From NCBI RefSeq assembly GCF_023008405.1, contig NZ_CP095376.1:8350501-8414500 (forward strand): a stretch of DNA of 64,000 nt. The letters run 5' to 3'. The translations under genes and the position numbers were made by a program. The notes under the pieces are model-generated. The model had not been told where the DNA came from. It saw only the letters and a program-made list of their open reading frames with translations, and did no database searches. Below, piece by piece: positions 57,341-61,575 of the stretch. Positions within the stretch are counted from its first letter, which is position 1. Each line of letters opens with the position of its first letter. The DNA is from Amycolatopsis sp. FBCC-B4732. GTDB lineage: Bacteria; Actinomycetota; Actinomycetes; Mycobacteriales; Pseudonocardiaceae.

Positions 57341-57526
57341 TCACTTCTTGAACAGGTCCTTGGCGGCGTCCTTCACGTTCTCGACGGCGCCCTTGAGCCC
57401 GGCCTTCGCCTGGTCGGCCTGGCCCTCGGCCTGCAGCTGCTCGTTCCCGGTGGCGTCACCGGCCGCTTCTTTGGCCTTGCCGCCCAGTTCCTCGGCCTTG
57501 TTGCCGATCTTGTCGCCCAACGACAT
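57341..57526 (-). CDS. CsbD family stress protein
   Basis: A 61-residue, highly charged helical protein with the CsbD repeat pattern: DKIGNKAEELGGKAKEAAGD, then LQAEGQADQAKAGLKGAVEN. CsbD of Bacillus is a general-stress (SigB) protein of unknown mechanism. GGAGGAGG lies before ATG 57526. It is divergent from the ECF sigma/Asp23 cluster, also stress-linked, and the two may share control across 161 bases. Confidence 0.9.
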   Translation of the reverse strand: MSLGDKIGNKAEELGGKAKEAAGDATGNEQLQAEGQADQAKAGLKGAVENVKDAAKDLFKK

Positions 57527-57622
57527 CGGGCACCTCCTCCTGCGGTGGCACCCCGGCGGGGCGCCCTGTGCCGTGAAGACCACCGGGGCGCGTGATCGTC
57601 ACGGATTCGCCCCGGTGACCCA

Positions 57623-57647
57623 CGTCACCGACAATCGGTGCGTGACG
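57623..57647. promoter_or_regulatory. CGTCAC-N13-GTGACG repeat before the sigma gene
   Basis: Inverted half-sites CGTCAC and GTGACG lie 41-65 bases before the ECF sigma start, inside the longer block GACCCACGTCAC. The same 12 bases and half-sites recur at 59458-59487, before the second part of the Asp23 cluster. It could be an operator or include the -35 box of the ECF sigma factor. Confidence 0.5.
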
Positions 57648-57687
57648 TTTTCCGCTCGCCGGTGTCCTCCTCCCGAGAGGAGGTGCT

Positions 57688-58242
57688 GTGACGACCGCCG
57701 CCACACCGCTTGACGACGCGACCCTCGTCGGCCGCGCGCGAGATGGCGACGTGCGGGCGTACGAACAGCTCGTGCTGCGCTACCAGGGCCCGATGTTCCG
57801 GCTCGCCGTGAAGATGCTCGCGCACCGCGGGGACGCCGAAGACGTCGTGCAGGAGGTCTTCCTCAACGCCTGGCGCAAGCTCGGCCAGCTCGGCGAGGAC
57901 GCCGCGTTCGTCGGCTGGCTCTACCGGGCCACCACGAACCGCTGCCTCAACGCGATCCGCGCGCGCCGGCCCCAGGCCGACGTCGACCTGGACGCCGCCG
58001 AGTCGCCGCGGACCGATCTGCAGCCGGAGCGGGCCGCCCAGGTGAGCGGGCAGCTGGCGGCGTTGAACGCGGCGCTGGCGGAGCTGACGCCCGAACAGAG
58101 AGCATGCTGGCTGCTGCGCGAAGTGCACGGCCGGTCCTACGAAGAGATCGGCGAAGTCGTCGGCGCGAACGCGACCGCGGTCCGCGGCCGGATCGCGCGG
58201 GCCAGGGCCCAGCTGGCGGAGGTGATGAAGCCATGGCGATGA
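57688..58242 (+). CDS. ECF sigma factor of the Asp23 cluster
   Basis: A 184-residue ECF sigma factor. Region 2 (about 15-85; YQGPMFRLAVKMLAHRGDAE, EDVVQEVFLNAWRKL) and region 4 (about 125-180; LTPEQRACWLLREVHGRSY, IGEVVGANATAVRGRIARAR) are both complete. GAGAGGAGG precedes the GTG. Its end overlaps the next gene, which has a zinc-type anti-sigma motif, by 10 bases. It probably directs transcription of the whole Asp23 cluster. Confidence 0.93.
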   Translation: MTTAATPLDDATLVGRARDGDVRAYEQLVLRYQGPMFRLAVKMLAHRGDAEDVVQEVFLNAWRKLGQLGEDAAFVGWLYRATTNRCLNAIRARRPQADVDLDAAESPRTDLQPERAAQVSGQLAALNAALAELTPEQRACWLLREVHGRSYEEIGEVVGANATAVRGRIARARAQLAEVMKPWR

Positions 58243-58805
58243 CGGACTACGAGCTGCCCTGCGAACGCGACGTGGAGCAGGTGTGGGACCGGCTCGACGC
58301 GGTCGGCGCCGGGCTGGCCGACGAACACGAACTGACCTGCCCGCACTGCCGGGTCGCGCGCGAGAGCCTGCTGGCCCTGCGCGAAGCCACCACGGAGCTG
58401 GTGGCCGAGGACGACGTGCCGTCGCCGGACCTGTTCGGCCGGATCATGTCGGCCGTGCGAGCCGAGGTGCGGCGCGACCGGATGGTGCGGCTGCCGACCC
58501 CGGAACCCGGGTTCGTCGAGGTCAGCGAGCAGGCGGTGGCGGCGGTGCTGCGGTACGCGGCCGACACGGTCGACGGCGTCCGGGCGCGGCGCTGCCGCGT
58601 GCGCACCGGCGCCGATGGGGTGGTCGAAGTCGACCTCACCCTCGCGGTGAGTCTCCGGAACGCCACGGGCGGTGAAGCGTTGGCGAAGGTGCGGGAGCGG
58701 GTGACCGCGGCGGCCGCGGCCCGGGTGGGCCTGACGCTGGCGAAGCTCGACCTGCTCGTGGACGACATCTTCGAGGAAGACACGGTCGGGGAGCCAGGGG
58801 AATGA
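58233..58805 (+). CDS. Anti-sigma-type zinc motif fused to Asp23-like domain
   Basis: A 190-residue protein. The N-terminus (about 1-55) has DEHELTCPHCRVARESLLAL, whose H-x3-C-x2-C is the ZAS anti-sigma signature. The C-terminal half (about 95-180) follows the Asp23/Gls24 pattern: VSEQAVAAVLRYAADTVDGV, then a strand pair (DGVVEVDLTLAVSL) and KVRERVTAAAAARVGLTLAK. The ATG at 58233 overlaps the sigma gene by 10 bases, as for sigma/anti-sigma pairs. It has no membrane helix. I infer that it holds the sigma factor and senses the Asp23 assembly. Confidence 0.8.
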   Translation: MAMTDYELPCERDVEQVWDRLDAVGAGLADEHELTCPHCRVARESLLALREATTELVAEDDVPSPDLFGRIMSAVRAEVRRDRMVRLPTPEPGFVEVSEQAVAAVLRYAADTVDGVRARRCRVRTGADGVVEVDLTLAVSLRNATGGEALAKVRERVTAAAAARVGLTLAKLDLLVDDIFEEDTVGEPGE

Positions 58806-59164
58806 GCGTTGACTACGTGGTCGCCGATCCGGTGATCGCGAGCGTGGCGGCACGGGCGGCGATCGCCACGCCGGGGGTGGTGCGGCTCGAGCCGGGCCTG
58901 CGCGGCCTGGTGACGGCGTGGACGCGCGCGGCCCGCCAGCGCTGGAAGGGGCTCGACCCGGCGCCGGCGGACGGCGTCCGGGTCCGCACCGCGGACGGCC
59001 GGGTGACGGTCCACGTCGACCTGGTCACCGCGGGGGCGGACCAGGCGGCGGCGGTCGGCCGTGCGGTCCAGCGCTCGGTGACCCGGTTCGTCGCCGAGCA
59101 GACCGGTTTGGTCGTCGACGAAGTGTCGGTGTCCATCATGGACATCGAGCCGGCGCCCCGGTGA
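58802..59164 (+). CDS. Asp23/Gls24-like protein
   Basis: A 120-residue protein with the Asp23 core: VIASVAARAAIATPGVVRLE, DGRVTVHVDLVTAG, then AVGRAVQRSVTRFVAEQTGL and VDEVSVSIMDIEP. It lacks the conserved Gly-rich middle of full Asp23 but has a positively charged insert (ARQRWKG). Asp23 proteins polymerise at the membrane under envelope stress. The ATG overlaps the preceding stop as ATGA; its own stop overlaps the next GTG. Confidence 0.78.
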   Translation: MSVDYVVADPVIASVAARAAIATPGVVRLEPGLRGLVTAWTRAARQRWKGLDPAPADGVRVRTADGRVTVHVDLVTAGADQAAAVGRAVQRSVTRFVAEQTGLVVDEVSVSIMDIEPAPR

Positions 59165-59481
59165 CCGCGGACGAAGCCGTCGAGAAGATCGTCGGCGCGC
59201 TGAAGGAGATCGACGGCCTCCGCCCGGCGACGCCGGTTTCCCCCGGGACGACGTGGTTGCCGGTCGACTGGGAAGGCATGGCCGTCGACCTTTCGGCCGA
59301 CGTCGTCCAGATCCGCCTGATCGCGACCCGGCTGCCGATCCCCCCGCTGCTGGACCGCGCGGCGGAACTCGTGCGCCCGGTGCTGGCGGGGACGGAATGG
59401 GAAAAGGCGCGCCTGCGGCTGATCGTCACCGACCTCGACGGCGCCGCGTTCGCCGGAGACCCACGTCACACGAAAGGGTAA
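59161..59481 (+). CDS. Small protein, possible divergent Asp23-like
   Basis: A 106-residue soluble protein: ADEAVEKIVGALKEIDGLRP, GMAVDLSADVVQIRLIATRL, PIPPLLDRAAELVRPVLAGT and RLRLIVTDLDGAAF. The helix-strand-strand-helix-strand order matches the Asp23 fold, but the sequence is too divergent to call firmly. GTG 59161 overlaps the preceding stop. Its last codons hold the second CGTCAC/GTGACG repeat. Confidence 0.7.
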   Translation: MTADEAVEKIVGALKEIDGLRPATPVSPGTTWLPVDWEGMAVDLSADVVQIRLIATRLPIPPLLDRAAELVRPVLAGTEWEKARLRLIVTDLDGAAFAGDPRHTKG

Positions 59482-59487
59482 GTGACG
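59464..59487. promoter_or_regulatory. CGTCAC-N12-GTGACG repeat before the second Asp23 unit
   Basis: The same GACCCACGTCAC block and half-sites as at 57623-57647. It overlaps the stop of the preceding gene and lies 76-99 bases before the Asp23 gene at 59563, as expected for a second promoter or operator of the cluster. Confidence 0.5.
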
Positions 59488-59562
59488 ATCTCCCCTCCGC
59501 TGGGTCCTTACCTACGAACAAGGCGAAAAGCCTTGAGGCACCGGACATCCAGGGAGGACCCC

Positions 59563-60012
59563 ATGACCGCGACGGCCGAGAAGAACACGGTGGCCACCAC
59601 CGCCACCACCGAGAGCGCCCTCGTCACCAAGCAGGGCACCACCACCATCGCCGACACCGTCGTCCAGAAGATCGCCGGGCTCGCCGCCCGCGAGGTCACC
59701 GGCGTGTACGACCTCGGCGGCGGCGCGGCCCGCGCGCTGAGCGCCATCCGCGACCGCATCCCGGGCGCGTCCGCCAGTGTCGGCCAGGGCGTGACGGTCG
59801 AGGTCGGCGAAAAGCAGGCGGCGGTCGACCTGCAGCTCCTGGTCGAGTACGGCGTCGCGATCGCCGACCTCGCGCGGGCGGTGCGCCGCAACGTGATCAC
59901 CGCGATCGAGCAGATGACCGGGCTCGAGGTCGTCGAGGTGAACATCAACGTCAACGACGTCCACCTGCCCGGTGACGACGACGAGCCGGTCGCCTCGGAC
60001 CGGGTGCGCTGA
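59563..60012 (+). CDS. Asp23/Gls24 family envelope stress protein
   Basis: A 149-residue protein and the most typical Asp23 member here: TTTIADTVVQKIAGLAAREV, TGVYDLGGG, GVTVEVGEKQAAVDLQLLVE, YGVAIADLARAVRRNVITAI and EQMTGLEVVEVNINVNDV. In Staphylococcus Asp23 forms a membrane-proximal layer anchored by AmaP. GGGAGGA precedes the ATG. It starts the second unit of the cluster after an 81-base gap. Confidence 0.92.
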   Translation: MTATAEKNTVATTATTESALVTKQGTTTIADTVVQKIAGLAAREVTGVYDLGGGAARALSAIRDRIPGASASVGQGVTVEVGEKQAAVDLQLLVEYGVAIADLARAVRRNVITAIEQMTGLEVVEVNINVNDVHLPGDDDEPVASDRVR

Positions 60013-60014
60013 CG

Positions 60015-60197
60015 ATGAACGCGACGCTGCTCGGCCTGTTGTACGGACTGGCGCTGGGTTTCGCCGCCGCGTTCGGCGGCTTCGGCGCGTTCGTGGCGGT
60101 GTTCGTCCTCGGCGGGCTCGGCCTGCTGGCCGGGCGCTGGCTCGACGGCAAGCTCGACCTGTCCGCCCTCGTGGGCGCCGCGCGCGATCGGAGGTAG
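60015..60197 (+). CDS. Small membrane protein (DUF2273-like)
   Basis: A 60-residue protein with a hydrophobic segment of about 35 residues (LLGLLYGLALGFAAAFGGFG, then VAVFVLGGLGLLAG) and a charged tail (RWLDGKLDLSALV). Small DUF2273 membrane proteins accompany AmaP and Asp23 in Gram-positives, and the position fits. It starts 3 bases after the Asp23 stop. Confidence 0.8.
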   Translation: MNATLLGLLYGLALGFAAAFGGFGAFVAVFVLGGLGLLAGRWLDGKLDLSALVGAARDRR

Positions 60198-60200
60198 CTC

Positions 60201-60500
60201 GTGGAACGCGGAGTGACCACCGTGGCCCCGCGGGCGGTGCGGCGCATCGCCGCGCACGCCGCCCGCGAGGTGGACGGCGTCGGCGGCGACGTGACCGCCG
60301 AGGCCACTGTGGACGGAGAGTCGACCACTTTGGACATCCGGCTGCCCCTGGCGTACCCGGCCCCGATCACGGCTACGGCCGAGGCGGTCCGGGCGCACCT
60401 GCTCGGCCGGACGGCGGAACTGACCGGCCTGACCACGAGGCGCGTGGACATCACGGCCGAGCCGGCCCGGCACGAGCAGCCGAAGCGGCGGGTCCGGTGA
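60201..60500 (+). CDS. Asp23/Gls24-like protein
   Basis: A 99-residue Asp23-family protein: VAPRAVRRIAAHAAREVDGV, TTLDIRLPLAYPAPITATAE, AVRAHLLGRTAELTGLTTRR and VDITAEP. It is shorter than the member at 59563. GGAGG precedes GTG 60201, and its stop overlaps the next gene as GTGA. Confidence 0.85.
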   Translation: MERGVTTVAPRAVRRIAAHAAREVDGVGGDVTAEATVDGESTTLDIRLPLAYPAPITATAEAVRAHLLGRTAELTGLTTRRVDITAEPARHEQPKRRVR

Positions 60501-61021
60501 GGCGCCCGCGGCGGAGCGTGCCGGCGGTGCTGACGGCGCTGGTCGTGCTCGCGGCGTGCGCGCTGGTCGTGACGGCGCTGGTGCAGCGCCTGCTCGGCGA
60601 GCGGCCGGTGCTGTCGTTCGAGGCGATCGCCGGCCGGGTGCACGAAACGACGTGGAACGCACTGCCCGTGCTCGTCGGGGGCGGGGCAGCGGTTCTGGTC
60701 GGGTTCGTGCTCCTGGCGGCGGCGGTCCTGCGGGGGCGCCCGGTGGTCCTGGCGCTCTCGCCGGCCGCCGGGGTGGAGGCGGGCACGACCCGCCACGGCC
60801 TGCGGACGTCGCTGCGCGCGACGGCCGCGGGCGTGGACGGGGTGGCGACGGTCGCGCTGAAGCTGGGGCGGCGGAAGGTGAGGGTGAAGGTGCGGACGAA
60901 CCGGACGAACACGGAAGGCCTGGCCGCCGCGGTGGAGACAGCGGTCTCGCGGCGGTTGGAGCAGGTGGGCCTGGCGGAGCCGCCGAGGGTCCGGGTCCGG
61001 GTGCGAGGAGGAGCGCGATGA
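60497..61021 (+). CDS. DUF6286-type membrane protein with Asp23-like tail
   Basis: A 174-residue protein with two N-terminal helices (about 9-30 and 55-77; ALVVLAACALVVTALVQRLL, LVGGGAAVLVGFVLLAAAVL) and a soluble C-terminal domain of Asp23-like pattern (GLRTSLRATAAGVDGVATVA, RKVRVKVRTNRTNTEGLAAA, VETAVSRRLEQVGLAEPPRV). The DUF assignment is from memory. GTG overlaps the preceding stop, and its stop overlaps the next ATG. Confidence 0.78.
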   Translation: MRRPRRSVPAVLTALVVLAACALVVTALVQRLLGERPVLSFEAIAGRVHETTWNALPVLVGGGAAVLVGFVLLAAAVLRGRPVVLALSPAAGVEAGTTRHGLRTSLRATAAGVDGVATVALKLGRRKVRVKVRTNRTNTEGLAAAVETAVSRRLEQVGLAEPPRVRVRVRGGAR

Positions 61022-61575
61022 ACCGGCCCGCGGCCCTCAACCGCACCCTGCTCGCCCTCATCGGGCTCGTCCTCCTCGCCGCCGGCGGGTTCGCCGTCGC
61101 CACGTACTTCGGGCGCCTTCACCTCCTCGACCCCGCCGCGCCCCTCGTGCCCGGCGCCGCACCGCCGCCCACCTGGGTGTTCTGGGTCGCGATCGGCGTT
61201 GCCGTGCTGCTCGGCCTCCTCTGCCTCCGGTGGCTGGCCGCGCAGGCGTTCCGGCGGCCGAAGAGCGTCGCGTGGCGGAGTGAAACCGAGACCGGCGCCC
61301 TCGTGCTCGACTCCGGTACCGCCGCCGGCCCCGTCGCCGCCGACGTCGAGGAGTACGACGGCGTCCGGGCCGCCTCGGCCTGGCTCTCCGGGCCCCGCGA
61401 CGCTCCCGAGCTCGCCCTGGTCGTCACCACCGACCGGGACGCCGACGCCACCGCCATCCGGGAACGCATCACCGACCACGCCGTCCCGCGGCTCAAGCAG
61501 GCCCTCGAAGTCGAGGACCTGCCCGTGCGGCTGGAAATTCGGCTGACGGCGAAATCCGGGGCGCGGGCGCGCTGA
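61018..61575 (+). CDS. amaP: AmaP-like Asp23 membrane anchor
   Basis: A 185-residue protein with two helices (about 8-32 and 52-75) and a cytoplasmic domain with Asp23-like pattern (VLDSGTAAGPVAADVEEYDG, ALVVTTDRDADATAIRERIT, VPRLKQALEVEDLPVRLEIR). This matches AmaP, the anchor that recruits Asp23 to the membrane in Staphylococcus. The ATG overlaps the preceding stop as ATGA. It is the last gene of the cluster. Confidence 0.82.
   Translation: MNRPAALNRTLLALIGLVLLAAGGFAVATYFGRLHLLDPAAPLVPGAAPPPTWVFWVAIGVAVLLGLLCLRWLAAQAFRRPKSVAWRSETETGALVLDSGTAAGPVAADVEEYDGVRAASAWLSGPRDAPELALVVTTDRDADATAIRERITDHAVPRLKQALEVEDLPVRLEIRLTAKSGARAR

What the first reader, a model, noticed from the sequence alone, without database searches (positions are those of the whole stretch)
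57688..61575. ECF sigma factor, zinc anti-sigma/Asp23 fusion and Asp23 proteins in one coupled cluster
Nine genes in a row: an ECF sigma factor, a protein joining H-x3-C-x2-C (ZAS anti-sigma) to an Asp23-like domain, then Asp23-like proteins at 58802, 59563 and 60201, a divergent one at 59161, a small membrane protein and two membrane proteins with Asp23-like tails, the last AmaP-like. Nearly all overlap by 1-4 bases. If each non-sigma member carries the Asp23 fold, this looks like an envelope layer that feeds its own state back to its sigma factor through the fused anti-sigma motif. I know of no described circuit of this kind.
Basis: partly seen in the sequence, partly recalled or inferred. 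Interest (0 to 1): 0.8.

Follow-up and report, generated by a model that had tools for sequence, protein, structure and literature searches.

The report
Sigma-factor brake fused to Asp23 domain
In soil actinomycetes, a stress-activated transcription switch is apparently held off by a zinc protein fused to an Asp23-like domain, and shared promoter-like sequences suggest the switch turns on Asp23 envelope-scaffold genes; Asp23 neighbours were already predicted to act as such brakes, so this looks like a testable new variant, not a new kind of system.

Summary
The nine genes are real. All 37 fetched relatives of the fusion protein (58233) lie next to an ECF sigma gene. CHCC is the type needed for redox release in RsrA (PMC4960319, passages). 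A motif, GTGACG-N16-GTC, precedes the sigma gene, the 59563 Asp23-AmaP operon and divergent csbD, and in relaxed form 6 of 7 Asp23 operons lacking a linked zas gene. Hold-out: 10 of 20 (sigma), 11 of 12 (aspB), backward control 0 and 0. Probably an autoregulated switch driving Asp23 scaffold operons. Asp23-family neighbours are already predicted anti-sigma factors (ECF286, ECF292; PMC8999054), mechanism unknown. What the Asp23 domain senses is untested; 59161 has no sequence link to Asp23; a genome-wide regulon did not replicate in four other genomes. New variant of a known kind.

The parts
57341..57583 (-). csbD (CsbD-like stress protein, 80 aa), divergent from the sigma gene; probable third target
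   Evidence: PF05532 55.4 bits, cut-off 40; a csbD was recognised divergent from sig in 14 of 37 loci, 11 of those 14 with the relaxed motif upstream
57578..57602 (-). promoter-like motif GTGACG-N16-GTC for csbD
57615..57628 (.). conserved palindrome GTGA-N6-TCAC upstream of the sigma promoter-like site; role unknown
   Evidence: 35 of 37 loci with at most 1 mismatch within 160 nt of sig, 15 exact, against 0.076 per 160 nt elsewhere in the loci
57642..57666 (+). promoter-like motif GTGACG-N16-GTC for the sigma operon
   Evidence: strict 20 of 37, relaxed 33 of 37 loci; hold-out relaxed 10 of 20, backward control 0 of 20
57688..58242 (+). ECF sigma factor (sig), 184 aa
   Evidence: PF04542 56.7 bits and PF08281 48.9 bits
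58233..58805 (+). ZAS-Asp23 fusion (zas), 190 aa, predicted anti-sigma: Cys10, His32, Cys36, Cys39; helices to residue 80; Asp23-like domain about residues 94-180
58802..59164 (+). soluble Asp23 protein (aspA), 120 aa
   Evidence: PF03780 42.9 bits; profile match to the 59563 family 97.4%; in 33 of 37 loci
59161..59481 (+). small conserved protein of unknown family (unk), 106 aa
   Evidence: 0 of 30 aligned sequences match Pfam at E<=0.1; model with a-b-b-a-b topology; in 33 of 37 loci
59482..59506 (+). promoter-like motif GTGACG-N16-GTC for the Asp23-AmaP operon
   Evidence: strict 15 of 29, relaxed 21 of 29 loci; hold-out relaxed 11 of 12, backward control 0 of 12
59563..60012 (+). Asp23 (aspB), main Asp23 protein of the operon, 149 aa
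   Evidence: PF03780 107.4 bits
60015..60197 (+). 60-aa hydrophobic protein (tm; DUF2273/GlsB-like, below cut-off)
   Evidence: PF10031 11.6 bits, cut-off 25.4; in 24 of 37 loci
60201..60500 (+). Asp23-like protein (aspC), 99 aa
   Evidence: PF03780 27.5 bits, cut-off 28
60497..61021 (+). DUF6286 protein with hydrophobic N-terminal segments, 174 aa
   Evidence: PF19803 92.6 bits
61018..61575 (+). AmaP-like membrane anchor, 185 aa
   Evidence: NF033218 61.7 bits, cut-off 55

Best explanation
The locus is a self-regulated ECF sigma switch for an Asp23-AmaP envelope scaffold. The sigma factor (57688) is held inactive by the 58233 protein, whose N-terminal half is a CHCC-type zinc anti-sigma domain and whose C-terminal half is an Asp23-like domain. 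When the brake lets go, sigma transcribes from GTGACG-N16-GTC promoters: its own operon (sigma, brake, 58802, 59161), the adjacent Asp23-AmaP operon (59563-61575), the divergent csbD, and further Asp23 operons elsewhere on the chromosome. Most likely release is by oxidation or zinc loss at Cys10/His32/Cys36/Cys39, as in RsrA, with the Asp23 domain linking the brake to Asp23 partners (58802, 59563). Shown by sequence comparison: gene content and order, the CHCC residues, the Asp23-like domain, the shared motif including at Asp23 operons that lack a linked sigma gene. Inferred: sigma binding, zinc, redox sensitivity, that the motif is this sigma's promoter, and any role of the Asp23 domain. My odds: 58233 is the anti-sigma, about 0.9; sigma drives its own and the Asp23 operons, about 0.85; thiol/zinc input, about 0.5; Asp23 domain contacts other Asp23 proteins, about 0.45. 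The confidence given is for the circuit as a whole and is not exclusive of the first two rivals.
For: All 37 fetched relatives of the fusion lie next to a sigma gene. CHCC in 37 of 37 loci, 120 of 120 listed homologues of 385 found, 21 of 22 loci of the second set, two of them duplicates, and 112 of 120 listed homologues of a Streptomyces-type protein. Asp23-like C-terminus by profile comparison, Pfam in 15 of 35 aligned sequences and an a-b-b-a-b model. Motif upstream of sigma: 33 of 37 relaxed, 20 of 37 strict; upstream of aspB: 21 of 29 relaxed, 15 of 29 strict; elsewhere in the loci 0.016 relaxed and 0.0035 strict per 150 nt of one strand. Hold-out with the pattern fixed: sigma 10 of 20 relaxed (9 strict), aspB 11 of 12 relaxed (4 strict), backward control 0 of 20 and 0 of 12. 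Asp23 operons with no zas in the fetched stretch keep the relaxed motif in 6 of 7 cases (4 strict), backward control none; in the four other genomes concerned the fusion gene lies megabases away. In one Streptomyces-type locus the divergent sigma and aspB promoters both carry it. RsrA needs the N-terminal zinc cysteine for oxidative dissociation (PMC4960319, passages read).
Against: No binding, zinc or expression data. The refined genome pattern (10 hits, 0 backward in the own genome) was drawn from sites of this same genome, so the 5 of 10 that fall on sigma, aspB and csbD genes are partly by construction; in four other genomes it gave 30 hits against 14 backward, and only the four sigma promoters were recognised. 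Ten of 20 hold-out sigma genes lack the motif, among them five divergent loci (L127, L129-L132) with no strong aspB in the stretch. Of 35 aligned fusions none matched a Pfam zinc anti-sigma family at E<=0.01; only Asp23 and DUF6286 appeared. Fold searches matched only the C-terminal domain, so the anti-sigma fold was not confirmed against a solved structure. The RsrA paper also cites a contrary report of oxidation-sensitive HHCC RslA, so CHCC is not a strict rule. Loci are related, so counts are not independent.
Confidence: 0.62

Rival explanations
1. Scaffold-state feedback: the Asp23 domain of the brake co-assembles with AmaP-anchored Asp23; when the layer is depleted or damaged the brake changes partner and frees sigma, which rebuilds the layer. 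The zinc site is structural.
For: The brake carries the same kind of domain as the proteins its sigma is predicted to make; S. aureus Asp23 forms filaments and is held at the membrane by AmaP (PMC6954212, passages read).
Against: CHCC rather than HHCC is kept in 37 of 37 loci and 120 of 120 listed homologues, more than a purely structural site would seem to need. No interaction data.
Confidence: 0.3
2. Plain RsrA-type redox switch: the Asp23-like domain is only a dimerisation or localisation add-on and carries no signal.
For: CHCC type; soluble ZAS anti-sigma factors normally respond to oxidative stress (PMC8999054, passages).
Against: The motif-bearing genes recognised are sigma, Asp23 and csbD genes; no thiol-redox gene was recognised among the few own-genome hits, judged by eye. 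Listed homologues align over 79-100% and 73-100% of the query, so the second domain appears to be kept.
Confidence: 0.25
3. The GTGACG-N16-GTC motif is a binding site of another regulator, not this sigma's promoter; the cluster is co-regulated but not by its own sigma.
For: Its first half resembles the nearby GTGA-N6-TCAC palindrome, and 10 of 20 hold-out sigma genes lack it.
Against: Two unlike half-sites at near-constant spacing, and similar distances to start codons (aspB 65-99 bases in the six unlinked operons; csbD 71-80 bases in 10 of 11), look like -35/-10 elements.
Confidence: 0.12
4. Ordinary Asp23 cluster with a sigma factor beside it by chance; no circuit.
For: Asp23 operons without a recognised sigma gene exist in the same genome.
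Against: 37 of 37 adjacency across Amycolatopsis, Nocardia, Prauserella, Actinokineospora and Pseudonocardia, and again in two Streptomyces-type loci.
Confidence: 0.03

Closest known systems
ECF286 and ECF292 sigma groups (Casas-Pastor 2021, as reported in PMC8999054, passages read)
   Same: ECF sigma next to a soluble Asp23-family protein predicted to be the anti-sigma; model sigmas from Streptomyces rimosus and Mycolicibacterium cosmeticum; listed under unknown mechanism
   Different: The passages read mention no fused ZAS domain, promoter motif or targets. The original paper is not held, so I cannot say whether this sigma belongs to either group.
RsrA-SigR of Streptomyces coelicolor (PMC4960319, passages read)
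   Same: CHCC zinc ligands, soluble anti-sigma of an ECF sigma
   Different: RsrA is 105 residues; that it lacks an Asp23-like domain and that its targets are thiol-redox genes is recalled
ChrR-RpoE of Rhodobacter sphaeroides (PMC8999054 and PMC4960319, passages read)
   Same: Soluble ZAS domain followed by a second, sensing domain
   Different: HHCC site and a cupin-like sensor instead of CHCC and Asp23
Asp23-AmaP system of Staphylococcus aureus (PMC6954212, passages read)
   Same: Asp23 protein with its AmaP membrane anchor in one operon
   Different: No fused ZAS protein is described in the passages read; regulation by SigB there is recalled
Second ECF/Asp23 locus of the same genome (L046, about 5.355 Mb)
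   Same: ECF sigma plus soluble Asp23 protein plus an aspB-to-AmaP operon
   Different: Its 137-aa anti-sigma candidate matches Asp23 (28.5 bits, cut-off 28) but has no zinc motif, and its aspB lacks the promoter motif

Membership tests
ECF sigma factor | Sigma70 regions 2 and 4, short protein | tested here: met
   PF04542 and PF08281 over cut-off, 184 aa
ZAS (zinc) anti-sigma | H-x3-C-x2-C near the N-terminus | tested here: met
   37 of 37 loci, 120 of 120 listed homologues
ZAS (zinc) anti-sigma, CHCC type | fourth, N-terminal zinc-ligand cysteine | tested here: met
   Cys10 invariant in 35 aligned sequences and present in 37 of 37 loci
ZAS (zinc) anti-sigma | four-helix anti-sigma fold | tested here: inconclusive
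   Model has helices between residues 14 and 80, but no solved anti-sigma structure was listed; the other domain filled the list
ZAS (zinc) anti-sigma | gene next to an ECF sigma gene | tested here: met
   37 of 37
ZAS (zinc) anti-sigma | binds zinc and inhibits the sigma factor | not testable with these tools
   needs purified proteins
Asp23 family (58233 C-terminus) | Pfam PF03780 match | tested here: inconclusive
   13.5 bits in the window protein, cut-off 28; 15 of 35 aligned sequences at E<=0.01; hhalign 85.5%
Asp23 family (58802, 59563) | Pfam PF03780 over cut-off | tested here: met
   42.9 and 107.4 bits
Asp23 family (60201) | Pfam PF03780 over cut-off | tested here: inconclusive
   27.5 bits, cut-off 28
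Asp23 family (59161) | sequence relation to Asp23 | tested here: not met
   0 of 30 aligned sequences match Pfam at E<=0.1; hhalign 0.9%
AmaP | NF033218 over cut-off | tested here: met
   61.7 versus 55 bits
ECF286 / ECF292 | soluble Asp23-family protein encoded next to the sigma | tested here: met
   zas directly after sig; its Asp23 assignment rests; aspA follows
ECF286 / ECF292 | membership by the group's sigma model | not testable with these tools
   group models not available; source paper not held

The most novel reading that the evidence does not exclude
The anti-sigma factor is itself a subunit of the Asp23 layer that its sigma factor builds, so the cell both gauges its own Asp23 scaffold and reads cytoplasmic thiol state through one protein: a two-input, product-feedback switch in which a CHCC redox lock sits on a scaffold subunit and governs several Asp23 operons in trans.
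Probability: 0.25. Interest if true: 0.8.

Novelty: new variant of a known kind. Interest (0 to 1): 0.55.

Why it matters
Two ECF groups with Asp23 neighbours are listed in print under 'unknown mechanism' (PMC8999054). This locus offers concrete handles: a CHCC zinc brake, a promoter-like motif, and predicted targets, including Asp23 operons far from the sigma gene. It would connect envelope scaffolding to redox sensing in actinomycetes and would give Asp23, whose molecular function is called unclear (PMC6954212), a regulatory role that can be tested.

Tried and rejected
Rejected: chance neighbourhood (37 of 37 adjacency); one single coupled operon (81-base gap with its own motif); Asp23 sequence membership of 59161.

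Weak or negative: own-genome pattern searches were GTGACG-N14-GTGTC, 8 hits against 1 backward, of which two precede sig and a csbD; the refined pattern, 10 against 0, written after seeing sites of this genome, with five at sig, two aspB and two csbD genes, one before a BrkB-family gene and four that look intragenic by eye; and the one-base-longer spacer, 16 against 5, one of them at an Asp23 operon, the rest not examined. In four other genomes the refined pattern gave 30 hits against 14 backward (9 to 1, 7 to 5, 11 to 5, 3 to 3); only the four sigma promoters matched a known cluster gene. No convincing solved relative of the fusion or of Asp23 was found by sequence. No solved anti-sigma structure appeared; that absence is not evidence. 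No paper on a fused ZAS-Asp23 circuit was seen in the listings of ten searches (one search listed 20 of 150), in a library without most subscription papers.

Rows dropped: alignment of the fusion used 35 of 38 sequences, of 59161 30, of 59563 16 and of 58802 20, chosen by hand. The aspB hit in L136 looks unlike the others. In one search the miss in '6 of 7' is L178, a partial aspB match with a sigma-family ORF on the other strand; the sigma-linked aspB in L167 also lacked the pattern, and the other-sigma type (L046, L172-L177) had it in 2 of 7.


Full report
Setting. The window lies in a 10.19 Mb single-contig genome whose closest named relatives for the fusion protein are Amycolatopsis species. 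Nine same-strand genes fill 57688-61575. Names used here: sig (57688), zas (58233), aspA (58802), unk (59161), aspB (59563), tm (60015), aspC (60201), duf6286 (60497), amap (61018).

The zinc site. All 37 zas relatives found in genome contigs carry Cys-x(16-21)-His-x3-Cys-x2-Cys, as do 120 of 120 listed homologues out of 385 found, 21 of 22 loci in the second set, two of them duplicates of the first, and 112 of 120 listed homologues of a Streptomyces-type protein out of 493 found (most of the eight misses have longer spacers or a shortened N-terminus, by eye). The RsrA paper (passages read) names Cys11, His37, Cys41 and Cys44 as the zinc ligands and reports that oxidative dissociation needs the N-terminal cysteine, while citing a contrary report for HHCC RslA.

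Gene order elsewhere. Among the 37 loci, sig and zas are recognised in 37, aspA and unk in 33, an aspB-type gene in 30, and tm, aspC, duf6286 and amap in 24 each; contig ends cut some loci (in three loci the printed order zas-sig is an artefact of estimated starts, one search has sig first). Six Amycolatopsis loci have only sig-zas-aspA-unk in the fetched stretch. So there is a regulatory block and a separable scaffold block. In two Streptomyces-type loci the block sig-zas-aspA is divergent from aspB-tm-aspC; the genus comes from close homologues of the L113 protein. zas profile hits: 101 of 249 genomes of the family, own genome and partial matches included, and 15 of 16 other genomes of the genus as far as the list shows, which leaves out 128 genomes without a match; 26 of 296 across the phylum, many of them partial.

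Promoter evidence. The window has GTGACG-N16-GTC before sig (57642-57666), before aspB (59482-59506) and on the other strand before csbD (57602-57578). A simple Markov model expects 2.6 such matches in 64 kb on both strands and five were found, so in the window alone the count is unremarkable; position and conservation carry the weight. Across the 37 loci the strict form is upstream of sig in 20 of 37 and of aspB in 15 of 29, the relaxed form in 33 of 37 and 21 of 29; elsewhere in those loci there were 21 strict and 92 relaxed hits in 444,548 bases on two strands, several of them csbD sites. csbD was recognised divergent from sig in 14 of 37 loci, 11 with the relaxed motif. With the pattern fixed, 20 further loci gave 10 of 20 for sig (9 strict) and 11 of 12 for aspB (4 strict), backward control 0 and 0. 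The ten sig misses include five divergent loci without a strong aspB in the stretch and one Streptomyces-type locus (L112) where both promoters instead show a CGTCAC-N15-[GT]TGTCC form by eye. The loci are related, so these counts are not independent events.

Action in trans. The own genome has two Asp23-AmaP operons with no sigma or zas gene recognised in 9 kb, at about 1.85 and 1.91 Mb, both with the relaxed motif (spacer one longer; GTGACA), and a second csbD with the strict motif. Of six other genus genomes searched, four have such an unlinked aspB operon with the strict motif (L168-L171), and in these the zas gene lies megabases away. One further partial aspB match (L178) lacks it: 6 of 7 in all. 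Against a wider regulon, a genome-wide count of the refined pattern in four other genomes was 30 against 14 backward and only the sigma promoters were recognised; in the own genome the refined pattern was written from known sites, so its hits there are partly circular.

How it probably works. zas sits on sig; oxidation or zinc loss at the CHCC site, or a change in its Asp23 partners, frees sig; sig then raises itself, its brake, aspA and unk, and the Asp23-AmaP scaffold and CsbD. Making the brake in the same operon as sigma gives a negative loop. All of this paragraph is inference; which of the two inputs matters is open.

Relation to what is known. A review (passages read) lists ECF286 and ECF292 as having soluble Asp23-family neighbours predicted to be anti-sigma factors, under unknown mechanism; the primary paper is not held. 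Public annotation names homologues either 'Asp23/Gls24 family envelope stress response protein' or 'anti-sigma factor family protein'. The idea of an Asp23-type anti-sigma is therefore in print; the CHCC fusion, the shared promoter motif and the unlinked targets were not seen in the ten listings searched. The same genome also has a ZAS-less sigma/Asp23 pair (L046), which fits the published description more plainly.

Verdict. A conserved, probably functional circuit; a new variant of a known kind; the envelope-feedback reading is possible but not established.

Noticed in passing
window 57615-57628: Palindrome GTGA-N6-TCAC upstream of the sigma promoter-like site, at most 1 mismatch in 35 of 37 loci (15 exact), mostly 66-88 bases before sig; upstream of aspB 21 of 29 with 1 mismatch, none exact. 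Looks CRP/GlxR-like (recalled), so a second regulator may act here.
   Followed up: partly
L046 (own genome, about 5.355 Mb): Second ECF sigma with a 137-aa soluble Asp23 protein lacking the zinc motif, followed by an aspB-to-AmaP operon: a ZAS-less version of the same arrangement.
   Followed up: partly
L062 (own genome, about 4.667 Mb): The promoter-like motif lies about 65 bases before a BrkB/YihY-family membrane protein gene (PF03631, 119.9 bits); possible extra target, not replicated.
   Followed up: partly
window 59519-59535: Inverted repeat CAAGGC-GAAAA-GCCTTG between the motif and the aspB start, also seen by eye in a few Amycolatopsis loci; role unknown.
   Followed up: no
L114, L115, L116: Protein with what look like two Asp23-like domains (by eye) encoded divergently from an aspB-to-AmaP operon with no sigma gene recognised in 11 kb.
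   Followed up: no
L023, L024: Nocardia loci with a second aspC/amap-type copy (plus duf6286 in L023) downstream of the main operon.
   Followed up: no
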